A stretch of DNA of 61,966 bases from Deltaproteobacteria bacterium (GTDB taxonomy: Bacteria > Myxococcota_A > Polyangia > Polyangiales > Polyangiaceae), in the NCBI GenBank assembly GCA_016875405.1, contig VGRJ01000018.1, positions 1 through 61,966 on the forward strand. The letters run 5' to 3'. Made by a program: the position numbers and the translations under genes. The notes beneath the pieces were generated by a model. That model was given only the letters and a program-made list of their open reading frames with translations. It made no database searches and was not told the DNA's origin. Positions 43,770-48,938 of this stretch are shown piece after piece (positions within the stretch are counted from its first letter, which is position 1; each line of letters opens with the position of its first letter).

Positions 43770-45779
43770 TCACGGTCGCCCGTCCTTCTTCTCCGCGCTC
43801 GCCTCCTTGCAGCGCGGTGGGAGCGACGGCGTACCCGGGGGCGTGCGGTAGCCAGGCTTTCGCCAGCTCATCAGGCAGACGCGCTCGTGATCCGTCGGAG
43901 TGAGGTTCCCCGGGTCGGGGCAGCGATCTCGAAGCCACCAGACGTCGAACGCGACGAGCTCGTCCTGCGGGGAGCCGGTTCGCTCGTGCCAGGCCCGCAG
44001 GTAATCCCCCAGCGGCTTGTGATAGACGCGATTCCGGTCGAGCCGGATCCGGTTCCAGTAGTCTTGCTCGATCTGGCCGAGCCCGAGGCCGCGCGCGTCC
44101 GAGAGGTCGAGGTCGGGCTCGCCCCCTGTCAGCGGATCGATTCGGCGCCCGTCGATCGTGTACGCATCGATCGCACCTACCCCGTCCTCGCGCACCGGGT
44201 TCGGCGCGAACATGCCCCAGCCCTGGAAGATCCGCGGGTAGCCCAGCGCGGCGCGGAGGAGCCATGGCTGCGCGTGCTTCAGCACCGGGGCGGTCGACTT
44301 GTTGTCGTGGATGAGGGCGCTCACGGCGCACACCAGGAAGAACGCGAGGACGGTCTCGCGGAGGCCGACTCGGAGCCTCGTCACGAAGACGGGGAGGTGC
44401 CCCGCGTGGGCCGTGACGAGCGGCGGCTCTCGGAGGTCCCAGCCGAAGAAGCGCTCGATGCGCTCTGGGTGCGCTTCGACGAGGTGGACGATGGCGCGGT
44501 CGAGCCCGAGCGAGAGGAGCGCCACCACCACGACGGCGATGGGGCCACCCGGGAGCGCGCGGAGCGCGGCGCGATAGGCGGCGATTCCGGTGCGAGTCTC
44601 GCCTCGCAGTCTGGCCTCGAGGAGCGGCCCGCGAGGGGTGCCCTCGACGAACGTGATCGAGTCCGTAGCGTCGAGCGCGGCGAGCAGGCGTCCGAGCCGG
44701 AGAGCGAGAGGCCGCTCGGGGGCGAGCGCGAGCGTCACCGCGAAGCGCCTTCGGTGCGAGGCCTCGATCGCCTCCCAGTGCGTGCGCTGGAGCAGCAGCG
44801 TCGACCAGCCGATCATGAACCAGCTGAACGGGCCGAGTCGCATCAAGACGCCGAGCGTGCCGTGGAGCCCGGCCATCAACGCCATCGCGAGGGGTCGGGC
44901 GAGGCGTCGGTGCGATGGCCACAGGATCAGCACGGCGAGGAGCGCTTCGACGACGAGCGTGAGGTGTGCCGCCGCTTGCATCGCGGGGTAGGGGAGGTGC
45001 TCTCGCAGCGCGACCGCGAGCCCCGTCACCATGCGATCGAGGTGCAAGACGTAGTGCACGGTCGAGCCGCGTCGCCAGGTGTCGCCGTACTTGTTTACGA
45101 CATTGAACACGTAGACGATGCCGAGGTTCACCACGATGGCGAACGATGCGAGCGAGCGATGCTCGGCGGTCCACCACGGGGGCCGGTGGCGCCGGGCGAG
45201 GTCGGCGACCGTGTCGGCACGGTGTTCGCGGCGCGCGCGCCGCCATGCGTCCACGCTGAAGCGCTTGCCGGTCGGCAGGAACGCGAGCCAGAACGTGAGC
45301 AGGTTGACGACGACGTAGCCGCCGTTCTCGACGAGGATCAGTCGTTGATCGAGGCTCGTGGCCCAGACGCACGAGAGGATCGAGAAGACCCTCGTGGAGA
45401 GGCCCAGCGTGAAGCACGCGTGGCAGACCAGCGCCGCGGCGAACGCGACGTGCACTTCAGGGGAGGTCGCGAAGGCCGAGAACAGCGAGAAGTTGAACTC
45501 GGTCGACGGCCGGTAGAGCAGGTAGTGCGTCGAGAGGACGCCGTCGTTCGAGTAGTAACGCTCGGCGACGTTCCAGTGCCGGAGCGTGTTCGCGCAGAGC
45601 AGCAGGCCGACGACGATCCGCGCAAGTCCGAGCGTCCGCGGATCGGCGACGAGGTAGCGCGCTGCAAACCATCGACGCGCGCGGCGAAGCCGCTCACGAA
45701 ACGAAGGCCCGGGCGTGCCTCCCGAGGGACCAACCTCGACGCGCTCGAGTGCGGGGCCGTCGGCCTCGGCGCTCTCCAT
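43770..45779 (-). CDS. HTTM domain membrane protein
   Basis: This 669-residue protein has about ten membrane helices with the HTTM (horizontally transferred transmembrane) domain, distantly related to vitamin K-dependent gamma-glutamyl carboxylase. Typical segments are RTLGLARIVVGLLL (48-61) and RYYSNDGVLSTHYLL. It also has a C-terminal soluble part with GWGMFAPNPVREDG and a Trp/Arg-rich end. The middle region (about 345-400) weakly resembles a DCC domain without the paired cysteines. It is the last gene of a three-gene unit, 6 bp after its paralogue. Confidence 0.78.
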   Translation of the reverse strand: MESAEADGPALERVEVGPSGGTPGPSFRERLRRARRWFAARYLVADPRTLGLARIVVGLLLCANTLRHWNVAERYYSNDGVLSTHYLLYRPSTEFNFSLFSAFATSPEVHVAFAAALVCHACFTLGLSTRVFSILSCVWATSLDQRLILVENGGYVVVNLLTFWLAFLPTGKRFSVDAWRRARREHRADTVADLARRHRPPWWTAEHRSLASFAIVVNLGIVYVFNVVNKYGDTWRRGSTVHYVLHLDRMVTGLAVALREHLPYPAMQAAAHLTLVVEALLAVLILWPSHRRLARPLAMALMAGLHGTLGVLMRLGPFSWFMIGWSTLLLQRTHWEAIEASHRRRFAVTLALAPERPLALRLGRLLAALDATDSITFVEGTPRGPLLEARLRGETRTGIAAYRAALRALPGGPIAVVVVALLSLGLDRAIVHLVEAHPERIERFFGWDLREPPLVTAHAGHLPVFVTRLRVGLRETVLAFFLVCAVSALIHDNKSTAPVLKHAQPWLLRAALGYPRIFQGWGMFAPNPVREDGVGAIDAYTIDGRRIDPLTGGEPDLDLSDARGLGLGQIEQDYWNRIRLDRNRVYHKPLGDYLRAWHERTGSPQDELVAFDVWWLRDRCPDPGNLTPTDHERVCLMSWRKPGYRTPPGTPSLPPRCKEASAEKKDGRP

Positions 45780-45785
45780 CGCGTC

Positions 45786-47783: not shown

Positions 47784-47786
47784 GAC

Positions 47787-48938
47787 TCAGTCCTCGATGC
47801 GGAAGCGATAGTCGTCGGAGCGGGCGAGGCTCGGGGTGAGTTCGCTCTTCAAGAGCAGCGTCCGTACGGCCCAGAGGTCGTCGAAGATGCGGTATCGCTG
47901 CGCGGTCGCGTCCAGGTAATCGACGCCGCCCGAGCCGCCGGTGCCGGTTCGTCGACCGATCACGCGCTCGACCATGCGCGCGTGGCGCTGCCGCCAGACC
48001 ACCATCGACTGCTCGAGGATCAGCGTCGTGTCGATGAGCTCGCGCGGCCAGGTGAGGCGCGGTAGCTCGCGGTGACTCTCAATGAAGACGAGCGCGGCGC
48101 GCGAGTGGCGTCGTCGATGCTGCTCGTCCTCGGGCAGGTGAGTGAGGTCGCGAGCCTCGAGGAATCCGCGGGCGTGGTCGATGTCCCGCTGGTAGCGCTT
48201 CTCGAGGACCGACCGATCCATGTGGGGGAGGGCGTCTCCGGTCGACTCGACGAGATGGTGCGCCTGCGCCTCGTGCGACGCGAGGAAGGCCTCGGTGTAC
48301 GCGCGCACGCTTGCTTCGTCGTTCGACCCGTCGATCGGGGTCCGGGCGAGCCAGTCGTAGAGTGCGTGTCGGAAGCTCGGCCCGCCGGCGATCTGTCGCT
48401 CGACGCGCTCGAGTGCCGGCGTGGTGCCGCCCTCGGCGGTGCGCAGGACGTCCTTGTAGCTGGCCTCGCCCGCGCAGCCGAGCCGCTGGTCGTCATCGAG
48501 CCCAAGCAGGATCTCGAGCTGACGGATCTGCGCCGACTGAAAGCCGCTCGCGCCGACGAGCTGGTCGCGGAACGCGAGGTAATCGCGCGTCGTCAGCGTC
48601 TCGACCACGCGCCAGTGATCCGCTGCGACCTCGAAGATCGTCACGCAGCGGCGCAGCGAGCGAACCGCCGACGAGAGCGCCTGGTCGGGAACGGGATTCT
48701 GCCGAATCACCGCGCGCACGTGCTCGAGCTCGCGGAGGATTAGTTTGAACCACAGCTCGTACACTTGGTGCACGGTGATGAAGAGCACTTCGTCGTTGCC
48801 GACGTGGGCCTCGTCGCCATGCACGCCCTTCTGGAGCGACAGCAGGTCCTCGACCCGGATGTAGTCCCAGTAGCTGATTCCGCGGTTTGGTCGTGTCACA
48901 GCGGCGAGGAGTCTAGTCGCCTGCCGCGCGGCCTCCAA
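47787..48938 (-). CDS. kynA: tryptophan 2,3-dioxygenase
   Basis: This is a heme enzyme of about 383 residues that opens the indole ring of L-Trp to N-formylkynurenine. Motifs are YIRVEDLLSLQKG (26-38), FITVHQVYELWFKLILRE (53-70, with the active-site His), GASGFQSAQIRQLE and the C-terminal IGRRTGTGGSGGVDYL. The start is TTG at 48938 with AGGA upstream; GTG at 48899 would also keep the family core. It heads a three-gene unit with two HTTM membrane proteins. No formamidase or kynureninase gene is nearby. Confidence 0.9.
   Translation of the reverse strand: MEAARQATRLLAAVTRPNRGISYWDYIRVEDLLSLQKGVHGDEAHVGNDEVLFITVHQVYELWFKLILRELEHVRAVIRQNPVPDQALSSAVRSLRRCVTIFEVAADHWRVVETLTTRDYLAFRDQLVGASGFQSAQIRQLEILLGLDDDQRLGCAGEASYKDVLRTAEGGTTPALERVERQIAGGPSFRHALYDWLARTPIDGSNDEASVRAYTEAFLASHEAQAHHLVESTGDALPHMDRSVLEKRYQRDIDHARGFLEARDLTHLPEDEQHRRRHSRAALVFIESHRELPRLTWPRELIDTTLILEQSMVVWRQRHARMVERVIGRRTGTGGSGGVDYLDATAQRYRIFDDLWAVRTLLLKSELTPSLARSDDYRFRIED

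What the first reader, a model, noticed from the sequence alone, without database searches (positions are those of the whole stretch)
43770..48938. Three-gene unit: tryptophan 2,3-dioxygenase with two HTTM membrane proteins, one carrying a DCC thiol-disulfide domain
The three genes are spaced by 3 and 6 bp and are clearly co-transcribed. HTTM proteins are distant relatives of vitamin K-dependent carboxylase with no settled bacterial function. DCC domains do thiol redox chemistry. A cytosolic Trp-opening heme enzyme in front of them, with no formamidase or kynureninase nearby, suggests that N-formylkynurenine or a derivative is handled at the membrane, or that the three act on an unknown indole product. 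I know of no described system with this content.
Basis: partly seen in the sequence, partly recalled or inferred. Interest (0 to 1): 0.7.

Follow-up and report, generated by a model that had tools for sequence, protein, structure and literature searches.

The report
Tryptophan-dioxygenase operon with split carboxylase-like pair
In one family of soil myxobacteria, a tryptophan-opening enzyme gene is followed by two membrane-protein genes that are distant relatives of the human vitamin K carboxylase, each of which has lost the part the other kept, which points to an unstudied two-part membrane enzyme tied to tryptophan breakdown.

Summary
The three genes are real. The operon is conserved: the order TDO - HTTM-A - HTTM-B occurs in 25 genomes of 8 genera of the window's own family (tool label f1; Polyangiaceae by named neighbours). 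It needs only one gain and one loss on the TDO tree. Both HTTM proteins are predicted to have the fold of human gamma-glutamyl carboxylase (GGCX; Z about 21, next unrelated about 7). HTTM-A keeps the DCC CGxC motif (26/26) but has lost the lysine placed like the GGCX catalytic base K218 (25/26) and an ENGG motif. HTTM-B keeps that lysine and ENGG (25/25) but has lost both DCC cysteines (25/25). HTTM relatives away from TDO keep lysine and NGG, with or without cysteines, so the loss in HTTM-A is specific to the TDO-linked pair. TDO keeps the eight active-site residues checked. The window's genome and its four congeners have no detectable kynureninase, KynB-type formamidase or 3-HAO. Best reading: HTTM-A and HTTM-B form one carboxylase-like membrane enzyme with split thiol and catalytic sites, working with or downstream of TDO. 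The chemistry and the substrate are inferred, not shown. I found no published description, but only open-access full text was searchable.

The parts
47787..48938 (-). Divergent (eukaryote-like) tryptophan 2,3-dioxygenase; likely true start GTG at 48899
   Evidence: PF03301 198 bits; eight residues equivalent to human TDO Y42, Y45, F72, H76, R144, S151, H328, T342 invariant in 25 trio and 99 other sequences; TIGR03036 below cut-off
45786..47783 (-). HTTM-A: GGCX-fold membrane protein with DCC thioredoxin-like domain (CGMC near residue 322); position of GGCX K218 is Gln
   Evidence: DCC1-like 62 bits; AF2 pTM 0.76; GGCX Z 20.6; CGxC 26/26, Lys lost 25/26
43770..45779 (-). HTTM-B: GGCX-fold paralogue; keeps the K218-equivalent Lys (residue 230) and ENGG motif; DCC segment without cysteines
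   Evidence: HTTM 44.6 bits; AF2 pTM 0.77; GGCX Z 21.2; Lys 25/25, ENGG 25/25, Cys 0/25
49012..49296 (-). Small gene (about 93 aa) with a C-terminal hydrophobic stretch, cluster c9, overlapping the ferredoxin gene's stop; frequent upstream neighbour of the trio
49293..49805 (-). Ferredoxin-like protein with several 4Fe-4S motifs, cluster c21; upstream neighbour in genus g1 and several other loci
40243..41544 (+). bioA-like aminotransferase (cluster c2), convergent flank of the trio in g1, g45 and g41

Best explanation
The trio is an operon inherited in one clade of the window's family. HTTM-A and HTTM-B, products of an old duplication of an HTTM-DCC gene, form one GGCX-like membrane enzyme whose two functions are split. 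HTTM-B carries the catalytic pocket: Lys230 is placed like GGCX K218, which deprotonates the vitamin K hydroquinone (menaquinol would be the bacterial counterpart), so that oxygenation creates a strong base acting on a substrate. HTTM-A has lost that pocket and provides the thiol-disulfide (CGxC) domain, placed by homology on the cytosolic side, as redox partner that would recycle the quinone or HTTM-B. TDO makes N-formylkynurenine (or an analogue) in the cytosol, and the HTTM pair works on that product or in the same pathway. Shown: gene order, conservation, reciprocal motif loss, intact TDO residues, missing kynurenine genes in the window's genus. Predicted: GGCX fold. Inferred: heteromer, quinol chemistry, domain sides, substrate.
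For: Order conserved in 25 genomes and 8 genera; trio label needs two changes on the TDO tree, a gain and a loss; trioA and trioB are each one clade at 100/100. Reciprocal motif loss, with A losing Lys/ENGG only in the TDO-linked pair: all 23 HTTM proteins compared away from TDO keep Lys and NGG. GGCX is the only strong fold match to both models. In GGCX K218 is the base, W223 lines the quinone pocket and D220-S246 forms the Cap (PMC12589487); HTTM-B has Lys at the same spacing from a Trp, at the end of the same predicted helix. HTTM-A type found only beside TDO. No kynureninase, KynB or 3-HAO detected in the five genomes of the genus, but NadA is present.
Against: No biochemical, expression or interaction data. 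Genus g41 keeps a TDO at 66% identity without any detectable HTTM-A homologue, so TDO can work alone. HTTM pairs also occur without TDO nearby (G031, G066, G009), so their ancestral job was not tied to TDO. GGCX H160, part of the Glu pocket, has no evident His counterpart (ENGG there), so Glu carboxylation itself is doubtful. The K218 match rests on motif spacing and helix position, not on a printed residue-by-residue structural alignment. The charge pattern of the loops did not settle the topology.
Confidence: 0.4

Rival explanations
1. Shared transcription only: TDO and the HTTM pair are independent functions that happened to be joined in one ancestor and kept by translational coupling or regulation; TDO does ordinary tryptophan turnover and the HTTM pair modifies some exported peptide or protein.
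For: TDO without HTTM in g41 and in all the other Polyangia and Planctomycetota loci read; HTTM pairs without TDO; HTTM proteins are assumed to take part in maturing linaridin peptides (PMC9927463).
Against: The HTTM-A type, with its lost Lys, is found only beside TDO (26/26 copies), and the loss coincides with the TDO linkage. Adjacency persists at 54-58% TDO and 41-50% HTTM-A identity.
Confidence: 0.35
2. TDO is the partner that uses HTTM: the membrane pair supplies electrons or thiols that keep the TDO heme reduced (HTTM-A DCC as cytosolic reductant, HTTM-B as quinol-linked partner), so the unit is a membrane-wired tryptophan dioxygenase.
For: TDO works in the ferrous state (established knowledge); the DCC domain lies by homology on the cytosolic side; a 4Fe-4S ferredoxin-like gene lies upstream in several loci.
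Against: Other TDOs, including the many in this clade without HTTM, need no such partner; g41 keeps TDO alone; HTTM-B keeps the GGCX-like pocket, which this role would not need.
Confidence: 0.1
3. The HTTM pair is a bacterial gamma-glutamyl carboxylase acting on a protein encoded elsewhere, with TDO linked for another reason.
For: GGCX fold, Z about 21, and a Lys at the K218 position in HTTM-B.
Against: No His evident at the H160 position; no precursor gene beside the operon in the maps; no sequence-level match to GGCX in the PDB search.
Confidence: 0.1

Closest known systems
Human vitamin K-dependent gamma-carboxylase (GGCX)
   Same: Predicted fold over the membrane part and the start of the lumenal part (Z about 21 for both proteins); Lys followed by Trp at the K218/W223 spacing at the end of the fifth membrane helix in HTTM-B.
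   Different: Two proteins instead of one; DCC domain where GGCX has its TM8-TM9 connection; ENGG instead of the residues around H160; no detectable sequence similarity in the PDB search; bacterial operon with TDO.
Bacterial HTTM-DCC proteins without TDO (for example L159, L160, L163, L165, L171)
   Same: Same architecture and CGxC; Lys and NGG conserved.
   Different: Catalytic and thiol motifs in one chain; not beside TDO. In the trio they are split between two chains.
Canonical kynurenine operon (TDO-KynU-KynB), as at G076:C1128
   Same: Opens with a TDO.
   Different: There TDO, kynureninase and cyclase lie together; here no kynureninase or KynB is detected in the genus, and the TDO is of another clade.
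Linaridin HTTM protein CrdG
   Same: HTTM family protein in a conserved bacterial gene cluster, assumed to act in maturation (PMC9927463).
   Different: Works beside an alpha/beta hydrolase in a peptide cluster; no TDO, no tandem pair with DCC reported there.

Membership tests
Tryptophan 2,3-dioxygenase (PF03301) | Score above the family cut-off | tested here: met
   198 bits against 34.9
Tryptophan 2,3-dioxygenase (PF03301) | Heme and substrate residues (human Y42, Y45, F72, H76, R144, S151, H328, T342) | tested here: met
   Invariant in 25 trio and 99 other sequences
Bacterial TDO equivalog (TIGR03036) | Score above the equivalog cut-off | tested here: not met
   158.8 bits against 390.7
Kynurenine pathway operon | Kynureninase and formamidase in the genome | tested here: not met
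   No match to TIGR01814 or PF04199 in the window's genome or its four congeners; formamidases of other families were not tested
HTTM / VKGC-like | HTTM domain above cut-off | tested here: met
   HTTM-B 44.6 bits; HTTM-A 19.4 bits, under the cut-off of 27.7
HTTM / VKGC-like | GGCX fold | tested here: met
   VIA Z 20.6 (HTTM-A) and 21.2 (HTTM-B); Foldseek E 2.4e-5 for HTTM-A; predicted models
Functional GGCX | Catalytic Lys (K218) | tested here: met
   By motif position in HTTM-B, 25/25; lost in HTTM-A, 25/26
Functional GGCX | Glu-pocket residue H160 | tested here: inconclusive
   ENGG at the corresponding segment, no His evident; no residue-level structural alignment was available
Functional GGCX | Carboxylation of Glu with vitamin K hydroquinone | not testable with these tools
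   Needs biochemistry
DCC1-like thiol-disulfide oxidoreductase | CxxC in the DCC domain | tested here: met
   HTTM-A 26/26; HTTM-B 0/25

The most novel reading that the evidence does not exclude
A two-subunit GGCX-like enzyme, with the quinol-driven base in one chain and the thiol recycling domain in the other, that takes the product of a dedicated tryptophan dioxygenase and turns it into an undescribed tryptophan-derived product at the membrane.
Probability: 0.27. Interest if true: 0.8.

Novelty: new variant of a known kind. Interest (0 to 1): 0.52.

Why it matters
Bacterial HTTM proteins are widespread and hardly studied. A pair in which one chain kept the carboxylase-like lysine and the other kept the CxxC is a natural dissection of the family's two functions, and the tight link to a dioxygenase with a known reaction gives a handle for finding a substrate. 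If genome size and exact length are a guide, cultured myxobacteria carry the operon (G147 and G042 fit, from memory, Sorangium cellulosum So0157-2 and Minicystis rosea), so it can be tested.

Tried and rejected
A PDB sequence search with HTTM-A alone found nothing, and with the HTTM profile only a chance ribosomal hit; kinship to GGCX rests on fold and motif. NAD synthesis through the kynurenine pathway was rejected for this genome: no 3-HAO, NadA present. VKOR was looked for as a quinone-recycling partner: it is present, but in 97 of 116 relatives, so it says nothing. Positive-inside analysis did not settle the side of the DCC domain. Neighbours of HTTM genes away from TDO are varied and gave no hint of substrate. 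The idea that C154 holds a genuine second copy was set aside: L099 shows the same TDO-A-B-bioA-c40 order at 63-80% identity and ends inside TDO, as expected of a contig from a related strain in the bin, though a paralogue is not excluded. Literature searches found no description of TDO with HTTM.

Full report
What is there. On the minus strand three ORFs follow each other with 3 and 6 bp between them: a tryptophan 2,3-dioxygenase (47787-48938), a protein with a weak HTTM match and a clear DCC1-like domain (45786-47783; here HTTM-A), and a second HTTM protein (43770-45779; HTTM-B). The TDO probably starts at the GTG at 48899 rather than the TTG at 48938. The TDO scores far below the bacterial equivalog cut-off and matches human and insect TDO better than the other solved TDO chains. 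Eight residues equivalent to human TDO Y42, Y45, F72, H76, R144, S151, H328 and T342 are invariant in 25 trio sequences and 99 relatives, so it should be an active TDO.

How far the unit is conserved. A search of relatives and a collection scan gave over a hundred TDO loci of this clade in Myxococcota and Planctomycetota. Reading the neighbourhoods shows the order TDO - HTTM-A - HTTM-B in 25 genomes of eight genera of the window's family (g1, g45, g14, g32, g19, g47, g39, g4; in G060 the contig ends after HTTM-A). Distances are short, often overlaps of 4 or about 25 bases. Identity to the window's proteins falls to 54-58% for TDO and 41-50% for HTTM-A. The other TDO loci read have no HTTM. On a tree of 95 TDOs the trio needs two changes: one gain, and one loss in genus g41 (G044, G070), whose TDO is 66% identical but has no HTTM neighbour and no HTTM-A match anywhere in the genome. 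In a sample of 377 genomes of the phylum no HTTM-A of 41% identity or more turned up outside the family.

The two HTTM proteins are paralogues that decayed in opposite ways. They align over their full length. AlphaFold models from a ten-sequence alignment have pTM 0.76 and 0.77. Against solved structures the only strong match for both is human gamma-glutamyl carboxylase, Z 20.6 and 21.2, while the best unrelated chains reach 7.0 and 6.6. In GGCX K218 is the base that deprotonates vitamin K hydroquinone, W223 lines the quinone pocket and the stretch D220-S246 forms a cap on the lumenal side (PMC12589487, read). HTTM-B has Lys230 five residues before a Trp at the end of the fifth predicted membrane helix, matching that spacing. 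Over all loci: HTTM-B keeps this Lys 25/25 and an ENGG motif 25/25 and has neither DCC cysteine (0/25); HTTM-A keeps CGxC 26/26, keeps Lys in 1/26 (Gln 17, His 6, Glu 1, Arg 1) and has lost ENGG. The 23 HTTM proteins found away from TDO all keep Lys and NGG: 13 of them also have CxxC, 10 do not. HTTM-A and HTTM-B of the trio are each a clade with 100/100 support. So loss of the presumed catalytic pocket in the thiol-bearing chain is specific to the TDO-linked pair.

Surroundings and pathway. In the window's genome (99% complete) and its four congeners no kynureninase, KynB-type formamidase or 3-hydroxyanthranilate dioxygenase was detected, while NadA is present. This is not general: kynureninase passes its cut-off in three of the 25 trio genomes (G022, G042, G149), and the cyclase family occurs in many of the larger ones. 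Formamidases of other families were not tested. A canonical TDO-KynU-cyclase group exists in another genus (G076:C1128) with a TDO of the other type. HTTM pairs or single HTTM-DCC genes also occur away from TDO with varied neighbours.

Mechanism. The best-supported reading is a two-chain GGCX-like enzyme: HTTM-B catalytic, HTTM-A thiol redox partner, working with or downstream of TDO. The asymmetry, HTTM-A type only beside TDO but TDO able to stand alone, fits HTTM acting on or after the TDO reaction. By homology with GGCX (nine membrane helices, lumenal C-terminal domain) the DCC domain would lie on the cytosolic side with TDO and the catalytic cavity would open to the periplasm; charge counts do not confirm this. 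That the pair is a heteromer, that menaquinol is used, and that N-formylkynurenine is the substrate are inferences. Carboxylation of Glu is not favoured, since no His equivalent to H160 is evident.

Known or new. HTTM proteins were named as assumed linaridin maturation factors (PMC9927463); no paper found describes TDO with HTTM, or an HTTM pair with split motifs, but only open-access papers could be searched. The parts are known families; the arrangement appears new. I file it as a new variant of a known kind.

That G147 (14,782,125 bp) and G042 (16,040,666 bp) are Sorangium cellulosum So0157-2 and Minicystis rosea is recalled from memory of genome sizes, not tested.

Noticed in passing
40243-41544; L033, L034, L036, L099-L105; L037, L041, L043, L056, L064, L080, L081, L085, L097, L098: Biotin genes beside this TDO clade in two phyla: bioA convergent with the trio in genera g1, g45 and g41, and bioB - bioF/bioD fusion - bioA divergent from TDO, in places 14-36 bp away, in Planctomycetota. 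Unexplained; may be coincidence or old synteny.
   Followed up: partly
G000:C154:1-6574 (L099): Second, partial copy of the same locus in the window's genome bin (TDO cut by the contig end, 80% identical; HTTM-A 63%), with the same flanking order: probably a contig of a related strain binned in.
   Followed up: partly
G000:C63 (L178:6794-9019): A third HTTM protein of about 830 aa without DCC cysteines, keeping Lys and ENGG, related to HTTM-B and present in several genera next to other genes.
   Followed up: partly
51521-52654: Protein with copper type II ascorbate-dependent monooxygenase domains (C-terminal domain 52 bits), close to a serine/threonine kinase gene at 49943-51415.
   Followed up: no
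36034-38724 and 39079-40062: By reading of the translations, a GspD-like secretin and a GspC-like gene of a type II secretion system; the second (cluster c40) also flanks the trio in L034, L099 and L101.
   Followed up: no
L058, L063, L069, L072, L076, L083, L084, L087-L090, L092: In one planctomycete branch TDO follows tandem genes for large proteins (about 680 aa, cluster c4) with repeated stretches resembling carboxypeptidase-regulatory-like domains (by eye).
   Followed up: no
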